A program made the position numbers and the translations under genes. Below, piece by piece: positions 25,058 to 58,897 of a DNA stretch of 64,000 nucleotides (the first letter of the stretch is position 1; every line of letters starts with the position of its first letter). This DNA comes from Chloroflexota bacterium. Its GTDB lineage: Bacteria; Chloroflexota; Anaerolineae; Anaerolineales; Anaerolineaceae. The DNA lies in the NCBI GenBank assembly GCA_004347695.1, contig SLTK01000011.1, positions 47,601 to 111,600 on the forward strand. The letters run 5' to 3'. Under the pieces are notes generated by a model. It searched no databases, was not told where the DNA came from, and saw nothing but the letters and a program-made list of their open reading frames with translations.

Positions 25058-25134
25058 GGTGATCCTCCAATTATTGATAAAAAGTTAGGAATGGCCCAGG
25101 CAGGCCAATTCACGAGTAAGGTCAGCCCGCGAAA

Positions 25135-26154
25135 TTAGCGAGCCGGAACGGACTTGTTTACGCTCAGCGTAAGGCCCATACTTTCCATGGTTTCTCCCAG
25201 TGTCTGACTGGCGATGCTGCGAGCGCGCCGGCTGCCGTCGTGCAGCATATCGAGCAGCGCGTCTTTATCTTTGGCTAATTCGGCGCGTTTTTCGCGCAGC
25301 GGGCTTAAATAACGGTTGAGCATTGCTGCCAGATGCTGTTTGACCACTACATCTCCAACCGTGCCGGCCTGATAGCGCGCCTTGAAATCTTTTACCTGTT
25401 CCACGTCCGGGTCGAAGAGGTCGAGGTAAATAAACAGCGGATTACCTTCCACGTGACCCGGATCTGTCGGATGAATACGTGTCGGGTCGGTATACATGCT
25501 CATTACCTTGCGGGTGGTTTCTTCGGGCGTGTCTCGCAGCAGAATGGTATTTCCATACGAACTGTGCATGGTGCGGTTATCGGTGCCAGGCAGCCGCGGC
25601 GCTGTGGAGAGTAAAGCCTCCGGCTCGGGAAAGATGGGGCGGTACAACTGATTGAAGCGATGGGCGATCTCGCGTGCCAGTTCGATGTGCGGCAGTTGGT
25701 CCTCGCCGACTGGCACGATCTGACCTTTGTAAAGCAAGATATCCGCCGCTTGCAACACCGGGTATCCTAACAGGCCCAGCGATGGTTGTAGGTTCAACTG
25801 CTTTACCTGATCTTTGTAAGTAGGGTTGCGTCGCAGGCGGGCTTCACTCACCAGCATGCCAAGCAGCAGGGCGAGCTGAGCATGTTCAGGGACGGCGGAT
25901 TGCAGCACCAGCGTAGATCGCTTCGGGTCGATGCCAGCCGCCAACCAGTCCAGCAGTACTTCCTGTGTGTTGCCGCTAATTTGCTGCGGGTGCTGGTAAT
26001 CGGTTGTCAGTACATGCAGGTCAGCGATCAAGAAAAAGCAGTCATGGGTATTCTGCAAGGCTGCCCAGGTGGTCAGAGTGCCTACCAGATGCCCCAGGTG
26101 ACGTGGGCCGGTGGGTCGGTGCCCGGTGAGGATGCGTTTTTTTATTTCGACCAT
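25135..26154 (-). CDS. trpS: Tryptophan-tRNA ligase
   Basis: The 339-residue class I synthetase has the HIGH-type motif as HLGH in GPRHLGHLVG, GEDQLPHIELAREIAHRFN, and an AMLNRYLSPLREKRAEL tail. The KMSKS loop reads TMHSSYGNTI, so both lysines of that motif are replaced. The frame opens 234 bases earlier, but that part crosses the T-box leader; ATG 26154, with AAGGAG before it, is the start. Expression should be switched on when tRNA-Trp is uncharged. Confidence 0.93.
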   Translation of the reverse strand: MVEIKKRILTGHRPTGPRHLGHLVGTLTTWAALQNTHDCFFLIADLHVLTTDYQHPQQISGNTQEVLLDWLAAGIDPKRSTLVLQSAVPEHAQLALLLGMLVSEARLRRNPTYKDQVKQLNLQPSLGLLGYPVLQAADILLYKGQIVPVGEDQLPHIELAREIAHRFNQLYRPIFPEPEALLSTAPRLPGTDNRTMHSSYGNTILLRDTPEETTRKVMSMYTDPTRIHPTDPGHVEGNPLFIYLDLFDPDVEQVKDFKARYQAGTVGDVVVKQHLAAMLNRYLSPLREKRAELAKDKDALLDMLHDGSRRARSIASQTLGETMESMGLTLSVNKSVPAR

Positions 26155-26164
26155 ACATTCACTC

Positions 26165-26491
26165 CTTAATACAAAAACGGATTTATGCTCGTGGGGACGA
26201 ACATAAATCCGTGGTGCCACCCCGATTAGGCTGCTTTTGAATAAAAAATCCCTCTGTGATGCACAAAGGGAATGGCCAGCCTCACTCTTTTGGGGTACGG
26301 CCGGCCGATGGCTGGCGATACCCTTTGCCCTGATAACGGTGGCAACTCCGGCGCGGGTTACTGGCGATGCGTTCACCCTGCAACTCAAAGGTCCATTCAG
26401 CTTCGCTGTGCGGGCAGGTTCTCACTTGGTCCTGCTCTCTGTACCGTCCGGGCGGAGCTTACTCGTCCTCGTCAACGTCTTTCGATATGTT
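26165..26491 (-). ncRNA. T-box riboswitch with UGG (Trp) specifier
   Basis: Read on the minus strand from about 26491. The loop E strand AGTA (26460-26463) is near the start. A distal stem I pair GCAGG/CCTGC flanks AAGTGAGAA. The specifier region reads GAA-TGG-ACC, with TGG at 26393-26395. The T-box core GGGTGGCACCACGG lies at 26209-26222, followed by a terminator: ACGGATTTATG (26177-26187) pairing with CATAAATCCGT (26202-26212), then five T. Uncharged tRNA-Trp should stabilise the antiterminator and permit trpS expression. Ends are approximate. Confidence 0.93.
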
Positions 26492-55141: not shown

Positions 55142-56785
55142 CTACACCTGCGGGATGGCGCAGCCGTCGGCGCGCGGGTCAGACCCGGCGCAAAGCACAC
55201 CGGTGTGCGGGTTTCGTAGAATGATTTGCCCGCGACCAAACATGGCGCGCGCCATCCCGCTGACCATCTCAACTGGATGTCCCATCTCGGCCAGCCGCGC
55301 AATCGTCTGGGGTGGAATCCCTTCCTCCAACGCAATCTGCGGGTGAGTTCCATTGGGCGTAAGGCAGAAACGCGGCAGGTCCAGTGCAGCCTGCGGGTCA
55401 AGCTGATCATTCTGCATACCGATGACCACCTGCAGATGCCCCTGCGGTTGCATAAAACCGCCCATCACCCCGAACGGACCGTGTAATTCCCCGCTGCCCG
55501 AGTGAGTGGCCATGGCCGGGATGATGGTATGATACGGTCTTTTTCCCGGCGCCAGGGCGTTGGGAGATGACGGATCCAGACTGAAGTTGTGCCCCCGGTT
55601 TTGCAGGGTAAAACCCCAGCCGCGTGGAACAATGCCGGTGCCGAAACCCATATAGTTGCTGGCTATGAATGAACAGGCATTGCCTGTTTCATCCACCGCG
55701 CAAAAATAGACGGTGTCGCTGACGGCAGGCGGCGTTCCATGTTCGACTTGCGGTAGTGCTGCCTGCGGGTCGATCCATTTCCGTCTTTCCGCCGCGTATT
55801 CATCCGACAAGAGCCCGGCAAGCGGTATCGTACTAAAAGCGGGATCTGCGATAAAGCGGAAGGCATCCGCAAAAGCCAGGCGCATGGCTTCGATTTGCAA
55901 GTGCATCCGCTGCGCGGCGAGGGGGTCCATGCCGGACAGGTCGAATCCTTTGATCAGGTTCAAAGCGATCAGCGCTGCCAACCCCTGACCATTCGGCGGG
56001 CACTCCCAGATGCGCAATCCTTGATATTCCACCGAAATCGGTTCGACCCAGGTGCTGGTATGACCTGCCAGGTCGGCTTCGGTCAGGCAGCCGCCGGCTT
56101 CGGTCACGATGGCAGCGATGGCCCGGGCGATTTCACCCTCGTAATACGCCGCCTTGCCGCCTTCGGCAATCGCACGCAGCGTGCGCGCCAGGCCGGGATT
56201 GCGGAAAATTTCTCCCGGCTGCGGTGCGCGGCCTTCAATGGTCATTTCCCGGCCATTGAGCGCCCGGGCGAGCAGATTTTGCGCCACCCGCTCCCAGAAA
56301 TAAGCGGTAATTGGGGCTACCGGGAAGCCGGATTCAGCCAGCTCGATGGCCGGCGCGAGCACTACCGGCAGCGGTAGCCGCCCGAAACGCGCCAGCAGGT
56401 CAACCCAGCCGGCGCAGGCGCCTGGAACCGTGATCGTGTAAGGGTGGGCAGGCGGCAAAGTGGCGCCCAATCCTTCAGCCTGCAAACGCGCCAGCGAAAG
56501 CGCAGCCGGAGCGCGCCCGGAACCGTTGAGTGCGTACACCCGGCGGTCTGAAACCTGGTAATACAGCGCAAACATGTCGCCGCCCAACCCGGTGGAGGTC
56601 GGTTCGGTGACGTTCAAAGCGGCGGCCATAGCCACGCCCGCATCTGCGGCACTGCCGCCAGCGTTGAGGATCGAAACCCCGACTGCGCTGGCCAGCGGCT
56701 GGGAAGAGGCGCACATGCCGCGCCGCCCCAGCACTGGTGAACGATGGGAACGGAAAGATTGAAGTTCCAGCTCAGACCACTTCAA
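55142..56785 (-). CDS. ggt: Gamma-glutamyltransferase family protein
   Basis: The 547-residue Ntn-hydrolase has GGSAADAGVAMAAALNVTEP, STGLGGDMFALYY, and nucleophile Thr358 in VSDTVYFCAVD at the cleavage site. YMGFGTGIVPRGWGFTLQ and GVMGGFMQPQGHLQV follow. No signal peptide is seen, so it may act in the cytoplasm or be exported in another way. The start is TTG at 56785, overlapping the selD stop by 14 bases; a later ATG at residue 24 is also possible. It is cotranscribed with selD. Confidence 0.85.
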   Translation of the reverse strand: MKWSELELQSFRSHRSPVLGRRGMCASSQPLASAVGVSILNAGGSAADAGVAMAAALNVTEPTSTGLGGDMFALYYQVSDRRVYALNGSGRAPAALSLARLQAEGLGATLPPAHPYTITVPGACAGWVDLLARFGRLPLPVVLAPAIELAESGFPVAPITAYFWERVAQNLLARALNGREMTIEGRAPQPGEIFRNPGLARTLRAIAEGGKAAYYEGEIARAIAAIVTEAGGCLTEADLAGHTSTWVEPISVEYQGLRIWECPPNGQGLAALIALNLIKGFDLSGMDPLAAQRMHLQIEAMRLAFADAFRFIADPAFSTIPLAGLLSDEYAAERRKWIDPQAALPQVEHGTPPAVSDTVYFCAVDETGNACSFIASNYMGFGTGIVPRGWGFTLQNRGHNFSLDPSSPNALAPGKRPYHTIIPAMATHSGSGELHGPFGVMGGFMQPQGHLQVVIGMQNDQLDPQAALDLPRFCLTPNGTHPQIALEEGIPPQTIARLAEMGHPVEMVSGMARAMFGRGQIILRNPHTGVLCAGSDPRADGCAIPQV

Positions 56786-57839
56786 TGCCGGTTCCCGCGA
56801 TCACTTCGCCTATTTCCCAGATCGGCTGATTGATTTCCCGAGCGCGCGCTAACAGCGCATGGATGCGGTCGGGTGGGACGGCCAGCAGCAATCCGCCGGA
56901 AGTTTGCGGATCGAACAGCAGCATCTGGTTGGCCTGGTCGATGGCTGCGCCAAAACGCACCTGTGAACCAAAGTAATGAGCGTTGTCGTGCGCGCCGCCG
57001 GGGAAGTGCCAGCCTTCGGCGTATTTTCGCGCGCAGGAAACAAAGGGAATCCTGGCGAAGTCAAACCGCAGTGCTGCCTGGCTGGCATTGGCCATCTCCA
57101 GACCGTGCCCTAGCAGGGAATAGCCGGTGATATCCGTGCCCCCGCGCAGGGAATATTCACGCGCCAATTGGGCTGCGCCGGCATTCAATTGTTTCATCCA
57201 ACCCACCACTTCAGCCACATCCTCTGGCGCGGCGATATCGCGCTTGAGGGCAGTAGTGGTTACGCCAAACCCGAGCGGTTTGGTCAGCACCAGCCGGTCT
57301 CCGGGTTTTGCACCCTTTTTCGACATATAACGCGCCGGGTGGACGAATCCAATCACCACCAGCCCGAACTTGGGCTCTTTATCCTGTACGGTATGCCCGC
57401 CGGCAATCACCACGCCGGCTTCACGCGCTTTTTCAGCCCCGCCGCGGATAATTTCCGAGGTGTATTCGGAGGGAAGGTCGGGCGGCAGCGCTGCGACGTT
57501 GAGCGCCAGAAACGGCTGCCCGCCCATGGCGTAAATATCAGAAATGGAGTTGGCGGCGGCGATCGAACCGTAATCGTACGGGTCGTCCACTACCGGCGTG
57601 AAGAAATCGGTAGTGATCACCAGGGCGCGTTCATCATCCAACTTCCAGATAGCCGCGTCGTCGGGGGAATCTAAACCGACCAGCAATTCCGGATAATCTT
57701 GCTGTTTAAACATTCCATGAACCGGGCGCAGAACCTGCGCCAGCGCTTCAGCGCTTAACTTAGACGCTCAACCGGCGCAACTGGAAAGACTGGTCAACCG
57801 GATTTTCTTCCCGGACGGGTTTTCCGCAGGTTTGCTCAT
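56772..57839 (-). CDS. selD: Selenide, water dikinase SelD, a selenocysteine protein (in-frame UGA)
   Basis: The frame from ATG 57839 reads KKIRLTSLSSCAG, then UGA (57768-57770), then ASKLSAEALAQVLRPV before the ATG at 57713 that a standard caller would use. This matches the SelD N-terminus IRLTxxSxxAG(C/U)xxK: the UGA is Sec24 and Lys27 follows as the catalytic Lys. The rest is normal: TTDFFTPVVDDPYDYG, AAANSISDIYAMGG, GGTDITGYSLLGHGLEMA and DPQTSGGLL. Length with Sec is 355 residues, typical. It makes selenophosphate from selenide and ATP. A stem-loop (57725-57741) follows the UGA. It is 14 bases after the SPFH gene. Confidence 0.93.
57725..57741 (-). promoter_or_regulatory. Candidate bacterial SECIS element in selD
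   Basis: On the minus strand GGCGCAG-GTT-CTGCGCC forms a perfect 7-bp stem with a GUU loop. The loop G is 34 bases downstream of the UGA, within the range known for bacterial SECIS elements, and it is the first loop base as required by SelB-type recognition. It lies inside the coding sequence, at the right place to recruit Sec-tRNA and SelB. Confidence 0.8.
57768..57770 (-). other. UGA codon read as selenocysteine
   Basis: The TGA is the 24th codon of the SelD frame, at the place of the catalytic Cys/Sec. Conserved SelD residues lie on both sides of it in the same frame, which would be very unlikely if it were a true stop. Confidence 0.9.
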
Positions 57840-57853
57840 AATCCTCTGTATGC

Positions 57854-58897
57854 TTACGGTGTGGTGGTGGGTACGGGTGTAGCAGTCGGTGCTAGTTCAG
57901 GGATGGGGAAAAGGAAGGGAGAATTGCTTGGCAGCAACAGGGTTTGGATGCTGGGAGACAACTTGGTTATGTACTGATATGTGAGCATATCAGGGTTGTC
58001 ACGAATGATTGCCGAGATCACAGCCAGGGCTTTGGCTTCAGCTTCAGCCTCGATGATCCGCGCTTCAGCAACACCCCTGGCGTCGATGACTGCGGCATCC
58101 GCGCGCCCCTGTGCAACCTGGCGGGCCTGTTCTGCTTCCTGGCGTTTTTGCTCGACCACAAACTTGGCCTGTTGGGCAGTCTGTTCCGCGATTTGCTTCT
58201 GTTCAATCGAAGCGGCATATTCCGGCGAGAAAGTGATATTTCGCAGAACGAAATCCACCAACTCCAGGCCGTTTTCGTTCAATTTGGCTTTCAATTGATC
58301 GGCGACGTTGTTAGTCATATCCAACCGGCGGGTGCTGTATACTTCTTCGACGCCGTATTGTGAGACTGCGTCGCGAATAATCCCGCGTGCCTGCGCCCGC
58401 ACCAGTTCGTCCGTGTAGCGGTCCTGCCAGCGGATATGAACGTTAACCACCTGGGTGGGGTCGATCTGGAAAATGATCGAAGCGTCGACGTAAATTTCCT
58501 GACCGTCTGCTGTCCGGGCAGTGATCGAATCATCCCCACTGATTTGGCCCTCAATGGGCGCAATGGACATGGTGTAGGTCTGGCGCGAGATGGGATAACG
58601 CTCGACCCGTTCGGCGAACGGGATGATCCAACGCAGGCCCGGTTCGAGCGCTTGCTCGCGGTAGCCTTGCGGCGAAATCGCCGAGATGACTACTCCCCGT
58701 TCTTGCGGCTCGATGAAAACCATGCCGGCTGCTACAAAAGTGGATAAAACCGCAACAGCCAGGGTGACAACGATGGTAACGGTTGCATTTTTTATCGGGC
58801 GGTTGCGGCCAGCCCGGACGATTGCCAGTGTGAGGACGCCAGCAAATGCCAGCCAGGCAAGCGTGGCAATACCCTGAAATAAGCCCGCGAGGTTCAT
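57854..58897 (-). CDS. SPFH/prohibitin-family membrane protein
   Basis: The 347-residue protein has two N-terminal hydrophobic segments (about 5-25 and 40-62), then an SPFH/band 7 domain (about 60-240: IEPQERGVVIS, PGLRWIIPFAERVERYPISRQTY, and the YGVEEVYSTRRLDM block). A long Ala/Glu/Gln-rich coiled coil follows (EQKRQEAEQARQVAQGRADA), and the end is Thr/Pro-rich. Such proteins form ring scaffolds at membranes. Its gene leads the selD-ggt cluster; a link to selenium is unproven. A TATAAT at 58931-58936 (minus strand) may be its -10 box. Confidence 0.88.
   Translation of the reverse strand: MNLAGLFQGIATLAWLAFAGVLTLAIVRAGRNRPIKNATVTIVVTLAVAVLSTFVAAGMVFIEPQERGVVISAISPQGYREQALEPGLRWIIPFAERVERYPISRQTYTMSIAPIEGQISGDDSITARTADGQEIYVDASIIFQIDPTQVVNVHIRWQDRYTDELVRAQARGIIRDAVSQYGVEEVYSTRRLDMTNNVADQLKAKLNENGLELVDFVLRNITFSPEYAASIEQKQIAEQTAQQAKFVVEQKRQEAEQARQVAQGRADAAVIDARGVAEARIIEAEAEAKALAVISAIIRDNPDMLTYQYITKLSPSIQTLLLPSNSPFLFPIPELAPTATPVPTTTP

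What the first reader, a model, noticed from the sequence alone, without database searches (positions are those of the whole stretch)
56772..57839. SelD is a selenoprotein whose N-terminus would be lost in routine annotation
Seen: the frame upstream of 57713 continues through UGA at 57768-57770 to ATG 57839, with KKIRLTSLSSCAG before and ASKLSAEAL after it, and a 7-bp hairpin with GUU loop 34 bases after the UGA. Known: SelD of several bacteria (Haemophilus is the classic case) has Sec at this place, after IRLT. Inferred: this organism decodes Sec and uses it to make selenophosphate.
Basis: partly seen in the sequence, partly recalled or inferred. Interest (0 to 1): 0.88.

Follow-up and report, generated by a model that had tools for sequence, protein, structure and literature searches.

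The report
Selenoprotein SelD, start lost in databases
This bacterial gene for the enzyme that activates selenium carries a UGA stop codon at the position of the enzyme's key catalytic residue, where it is predicted to be read as selenocysteine, as is already known for this enzyme in many bacteria; of its 120 closest listed database proteins, 108 lack the piece before that codon.

Summary
Confirmed, and of a known kind. The selD frame runs from ATG 57839 through UGA 57770-57768 to its stop at 56772. Read through, the product passes two curated SelD cut-offs, and the UGA aligns with Cys17 of a solved SelD. The same genome holds SelA, a tRNA-Sec with TCA anticodon, and SelB with its winged helices.

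SelA is present in 82 of 82 tested genomes of the class with UGA-SelD, but in 1 of 5 with Cys-SelD. The hairpin 57741-57725 fits the published bacterial SECIS model. In 101 distinct UGA genes it is kept beyond what codon choice predicts; 0 of 5 Cys genes keep it. At its second pair, Ala/Thr/Ser codon changes are matched by silent Arg-codon changes.

The annotation claim holds: 108 of the 120 listed database hits begin after the UGA, and the 12 that span it all have Cys.

Sec insertion and enzyme activity are inferred. Sec-SelD and its misannotation are in print. One open point: FdhA here looks like a Cys form, YbbB was not found, and whole-genome hairpin scans showed no second plausible selenoprotein gene, but that search is incomplete.

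The parts
56772..57839 (-). selD, full frame with Sec codon 24; 355 residues
   Evidence: Read-through translation; TIGR00476 361 bits against cut-off 125, NF002098 340 against 299. The start ATG is inferred from the frame; no start was tested.
57768..57770 (-). In-frame UGA, predicted Sec24, opposite Cys17 of SelD in PDB 3u0o
   Evidence: Cys at this place in 12 of 12 database homologues that span it; TGA in 102 of 107 parsed relatives' loci, window included.
57725..57741 (-). bSECIS-like hairpin, 7-bp stem, GUU loop at 57734-57732
   Evidence: Sequence; codon-null test, position scan and pair-2 covariation; pair counts.
57771..57839 (-). N-terminal 23 codons that routine annotation loses
   Evidence: Three-periodic constraint over the last 12 of these codons; 108 of 120 database homologues start after it.
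57711..57713 (-). Internal ATG, start of the 313-aa routine call
   Evidence: database homologues of 313 aa start here.
57854..58897 (-). Upstream Band 7 (SPFH) gene, 14 bases before selD
   Evidence: PF01145, 124 bits; found beside selD in 39 of 60 relatives' loci, many with short flanks. No role in selenium use is claimed.

Best explanation
The window's selD gene (56772-57839, minus strand) holds an in-frame UGA at codon 24 that is predicted to be decoded as selenocysteine by SelB and tRNA-Sec, likely directed by the conserved hairpin that starts 27 bases downstream. Shown: the UGA, its alignment with Cys17 of a solved SelD, genes for SelA, SelB and tRNA-Sec in the same genome, and selection on the hairpin in UGA genes. 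Inferred: the SelB winged helices bind the hairpin, Sec is inserted, and Sec24 serves as the catalytic residue with which the enzyme makes selenophosphate from selenide and ATP. The product would then supply SelA with selenium, also for the Sec of SelD itself. Cys21 may pair with Sec24 as a selenenylsulphide; that is a guess from conservation.
For: Protein: two SelD equivalogs over cut-off; U24 opposite Cys17 in 3u0o; Cys there in 12 of 12 database homologues spanning the site. Machinery: SelA 444 bits, SelB 356 bits against cut-off 242 with winged helices wing_2 and wing_3, tRNA-Sec 72 bits against 47 with TCA anticodon. Comparative: each listed SelD row has one TGA except G253's; SelA in 82 of 82 UGA-SelD genomes and 1 of 5 Cys-SelD genomes. 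Hairpin: 6.38 of 7 pairs against 4.25 in the codon null (n=101), none of 5 Cys genes with 6 or more pairs; pair 2 Watson-Crick in 70 of 82, shuffle mean 40.3, highest 57 of 20000.
Against: No experiment. The hairpin of the window alone is not exceptional (z -1.36). 18 of 101 UGA genes have fewer than six of the seven pairs, and among 32 distinct stem-loops pair 7 is broken in 15, pair 3 in 10 and pair 2 in 8, so the exact geometry varies. One of 5 Cys genes also folds better than its null (z below -1.5). G242 has Cys-SelD with SelA, and G362 has SelA without a SelD match. The tRNA-Sec cut-off is also passed in 5 of 14 control genomes, so that family score alone is not specific. Sequences are related, so the association and shuffle figures overstate independence.
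Confidence: 0.96

Rival explanations
1. The UGA is a real stop and translation starts at the internal ATG 57713, giving a 313-aa protein without the catalytic segment.
For: This is what routine calling gives and what 108 of 120 listed database entries show.
Against: The segment before the UGA is conserved as protein in 101 relatives. The 12 database homologues that span the site keep the same segment with Cys. The UGA with its hairpin goes together with SelA.
Confidence: 0.02
2. UGA is read as another amino acid, by a reassigned code or general read-through.
For: An open frame through UGA alone cannot tell these apart.
Against: The same gene ends at a UGA. SelA, SelB and tRNA-Sec are present. 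Where the codon was readable and not UGA it is Cys in the relatives parsed (5 of 5 distinct genes).
Confidence: 0.01
3. A decayed gene or an assembly error that turned a Cys codon into UGA.
For: The window genome is a 14-contig assembly, 91.5% complete.
Against: Other genomes, among them Leptolinea tardivitalis YMTK-2 (L062) and Leptolinea sp. HRD-7 (L071), have the same UGA and hairpin. The rest of the frame is open and conserved.
Confidence: 0.01

Closest known systems
Sec-containing SelD of bacteria
   Same: Sec at the catalytic position after IRLT, in a genome with SelA, SelB and tRNA-Sec; reported for 19% of SelD genes in a reference set and always at the same position (PMC4561486, passage)
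   Different: Here UGA is the rule in the class as sampled (48 of 55; listed rows). A Cys at -3 (97 of 101) and none at +2 (0 of 101), whereas 3u0o has Cys17 and Cys19
Cys-SelD (PDB 3u0o; E. coli by recall)
   Same: Same family over the whole length
   Different: Cys instead of UGA; 313-aa truncation not an issue there
E. coli fdhF SECIS hairpin
   Same: GCAG...CUGC upper stem with GU in the loop. The 48 bases that I recalled match in 5368 of 5426 E. coli genomes, named fdhF in the three rows shown
   Different: Loop one base longer (GUU); no bulged U in the stem; loop 33 bases after the UGA against 19 in fdhF, counted from the sequences

Membership tests
SelD (selenophosphate synthetase) | Match to curated SelD models | tested here: met
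   TIGR00476 and NF002098 over cut-off; NF010705 under its cut-off
SelD (selenophosphate synthetase) | Makes selenophosphate from selenide and ATP | not testable with these tools
   Inferred from family
Selenoprotein | In-frame UGA opposite Cys of homologues | tested here: met
Selenoprotein | SelA, SelB and tRNA-Sec in the genome | tested here: met
Selenoprotein | Sec present in the protein | not testable with these tools
   Needs mass spectrometry or 75Se label
Bacterial SECIS consensus model (PMC13188914, passages) | Apical loop of 3-9 nt and upper stem of 4-16 bp | tested here: met
   3-nt loop, 7-bp stem
Bacterial SECIS consensus model (PMC13188914, passages) | G in one of the first two loop positions, often followed by G or U | tested here: met
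   GUU here; loop begins with GT in 96 of 101 UGA genes
Bacterial SECIS consensus model (PMC13188914, passages) | 16-37 nt between UGA and apical loop | tested here: met
   33 nt
Bacterial SECIS consensus model (PMC13188914, passages) | Bound by the host's SelB | not testable with these tools
   SelB winged helices are present; binding not measured

The most novel reading that the evidence does not exclude
SelD is the only selenoprotein of this organism: the whole Sec apparatus (SelA, SelB, tRNA-Sec, SelD) is kept to make the enzyme that feeds it, with no selenouridine branch to justify it. Not excluded: the formate dehydrogenase looks like a Cys form, YbbB was not found, and whole-genome hairpin scans found no other plausible UGA gene.
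Probability: 0.12. Interest if true: 0.65.

Novelty: new member of a known kind. Interest (0 to 1): 0.33.

Why it matters
It shows how regularly a known selenoprotein is truncated in databases for one class of common environmental bacteria. It also gives a clean comparative case of an mRNA hairpin under selection inside a coding sequence, where an amino-acid change (Ala, Thr, Ser) is matched by a silent change in an Arg codon. If SelD proves to be the sole selenoprotein, it would make testable why Sec decoding is retained at all.

Tried and rejected
Other selenoproteins in the same genome: five molybdopterin oxidoreductase matches, none with a stop in the matched stretch. The formate dehydrogenase alpha subunit (TIGR01591 over cut-off) has Cys in a CTRLCH motif that it shares with a solved formate dehydrogenase; that this Cys stands at the Sec place of Sec-type enzymes is recalled. 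A whole-genome scan for the hairpin core gave 39 sites, against 22 for the reversed control pattern. Six of these sites had an upstream UGA with a frame open on both sides, and of those only selD looked like a real gene by eye. A covariance model of 32 SelD hairpins gave 22 matches, of which only selD looked plausible by eye; the selD hairpin was itself in the model. A mechanical search for UGA-extended genes in the window (57 genes), the selA, selB and tRNA-Sec neighbourhoods (33 genes) and nine further stretches (136 genes) listed candidates but none convincing besides selD. Peroxiredoxin-, HesB- and glycine-reductase-type families and YqeB/YqeC were not searched. YbbB: no match in G000.

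True stop, reassigned code and decayed gene were considered and rejected, as told under rivals. Rfam at the hairpin gave two chance-level matches only. tRNA-Sec was not searched in the Cys-SelD genomes.

Dropped or unparsed rows: of 112 SelD loci given to the parser, 107 were placed. L077 starts after the site, L146 is cut by a contig end, and L133 (G030) has an unread base at the codon. L116 shows the UGA but did not fit the search expression, and L158 was not parsed though one search reports one TGA for it. One early misplacement (L027) was corrected. After removal of identical 60-base windows, 101 UGA and 5 Cys genes remained. G030 and G085 were left out of the Cys group of the SelA count for the reasons above. 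Searches list only part of their matches. The 32 rows are one per distinct stem-loop, which over-weights the odd ones.

Papers: PMC1794560, PMC5029168, PMC13188914, PMC4561486 and PMC5736913 were seen as found passages only; all others as search listings with the start of the abstract. Searches for Chloroflexi with SelD, Anaerolineae with selenoprotein and Chloroflexota with selenoprotein listed 3, 3 and 8 papers. None of their titles or abstract starts treats SelD of Anaerolineae, but most were not read. One search gave nothing on SelD; some searches gave listings.

Full report
What is there. On the minus strand the frame that routine calling starts at 57713 (313 aa) continues upstream through UGA 57770-57768 to ATG 57839. 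Read through, the protein of 355 residues scores over the cut-off of two SelD equivalogs. It aligns with the solved SelD 3u0o (E. coli, by recall) so that U24 stands opposite Cys17. The gene's own stop is also UGA, so the codon would have both meanings within one gene. ATG 57839 lies 14 bases after the stop of a Band 7 gene, which is found beside selD in 39 of 60 relatives' loci, many of them with short flanks.

The machinery. The same assembly (3.30 Mb, 91.5% complete) holds SelA (444 bits), SelB (356 bits against a cut-off of 242) with the SelB winged-helix domains wing_2 and wing_3, and a tRNA-Sec (72 bits against a gathering score of 47) that ARAGORN reads with anticodon TCA. The tRNA-Sec cut-off is also passed in 5 of the 14 control genomes, so the anticodon matters for that assignment.

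Relatives. A search of 396 genomes of the class gave a match in 378 at E 0.001; some of these are only weak matches, too weak to be SelD. In the listed rows each match has exactly one internal TGA except that of G253. For 55 chosen genomes, mostly those whose SelD was too distant to be listed, 48 of 55 matches have one TGA. Of the other seven, G253, G270, G107, G222 and G242 have a Cys codon, G030 has an unread base there, and G085 is cut by a contig end. SelA was searched in 69 and 55 genomes. All 82 distinct genomes with UGA-SelD have it: 35 of the window's order, G000 included, and 47 more. Of the five with Cys-SelD only G242 has it. Fisher's test gives p 2.2e-6, but relatedness is ignored, and G107, G222 and G242 are one genus. 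G253, of the window's own family and on a single contig, has Cys-SelD and no SelA, which makes it a natural control. G362, of the same family, has SelA but no SelD match at the strength of the others; this is not explained.

The hairpin. Fixed positions after the UGA were compared in 101 distinct UGA genes and 5 Cys genes. All seven pairs form in 67 of 101 and at least six in 83 of 101; none of the 5 Cys genes reaches six. Against a null that keeps the protein and redraws synonymous codons, UGA genes have 6.38 pairs (null 4.25) and -11.05 kcal/mol (null -6.13), with z below -1.5 in 75 of 101. Cys genes have 2.40 pairs (null 2.57), with z below -1.5 in 1 of 5. Along the gene the lowest mean z lies at this window (-1.81). 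At the second pair the 5' base is the first base of an Ala, Thr or Ser codon and the 3' base is the silent third base of an Arg codon. Of 82 such genes 48 have Ala with CGC, 16 Thr with CGT, 6 Ser with CGA, 11 Ala with CGT (G-U) and 1 Ser with CGG (U-G). That is 70 of 82 Watson-Crick against 40.3 expected by shuffling (highest of 20000: 57), and no mismatch among these 82.

On 32 windows, one per distinct stem-loop, the covariation score is 0.198 against 0.062-0.135 for six slid versions, and 1 of 500 shuffles reached it. Other measures are weaker: pairs with a change on both sides were reached by 29 of 500 shuffles and pair types by 23 of 500. Pair 7 is broken in 15 of these 32, pair 3 in 10 and pair 2 in 8. 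The fold of the window's own sequence is not significant. The geometry fits the published model (PMC13188914, passages), and the core GCAG-GU-CUGC resembles that of E. coli fdhF.

Annotation. Of the 120 listed best proteins in a database of 5.8 billion (8000 candidates scored), 108 start after the UGA position and the 12 that span it all have Cys. The gene of Chloroflexi bacterium GWB2_54_36, 96% identical in its best segment, has the UGA in its DNA (L046), but its protein is deposited as a 313-residue SelD (P0013). That selenoprotein genes are usually misannotated is in print (PMC4561486, passage).

Known or new. [quoted passage not shown] This is a new member of a known kind. Modest differences are Cys at -3 in 97 of 101 and at +2 in none of 101, and UGA as the rule in this class as sampled.

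Open point. The formate dehydrogenase alpha subunit here has Cys in the active-site motif (the place of Sec in that motif is recalled), YbbB was not found, and scans for the hairpin core and for the SelD hairpin model found no second plausible UGA gene. SelD as the single selenoprotein has been described in several YbbB-containing species (PMC1794560, passage); here YbbB was not found either. The search is incomplete: the assembly lacks about 8%, several selenoprotein families were not searched, and hairpins of other kinds would be missed.

Noticed in passing
window 26190-26484 (-): T-box leader (RF00230, 99.4 bits against a gathering score of 93), overlapping the upstream end of the ORF at 25134-26388.
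   Followed up: no
L073 (PABH01000020.1), selD hairpin: GGAGCAAGUUUUGCUCC: the third pair is A-U where most have C-G, with Ala changed to Glu and Arg to Leu, a compensated change on both sides.
   Followed up: yes
window 55142-56785 (-): Gamma-glutamyltranspeptidase frame (PF01019, 473 bits) whose called TTG start overlaps the end of selD by 14 bases; its true start is uncertain.
   Followed up: no
L064 and L075 (both JAAYYW); G031: Two UGA-bearing SelD genes in one assembly: paralogues or mixed bins.
   Followed up: no
G362: Same family, 99% complete, SelA present but no SelD match comparable to those of its relatives.
   Followed up: no
G242, with G107 and G222 of the same genus: All three have Cys-SelD, but only G242 has SelA: perhaps SelA kept there and lost in its sisters.
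   Followed up: partly
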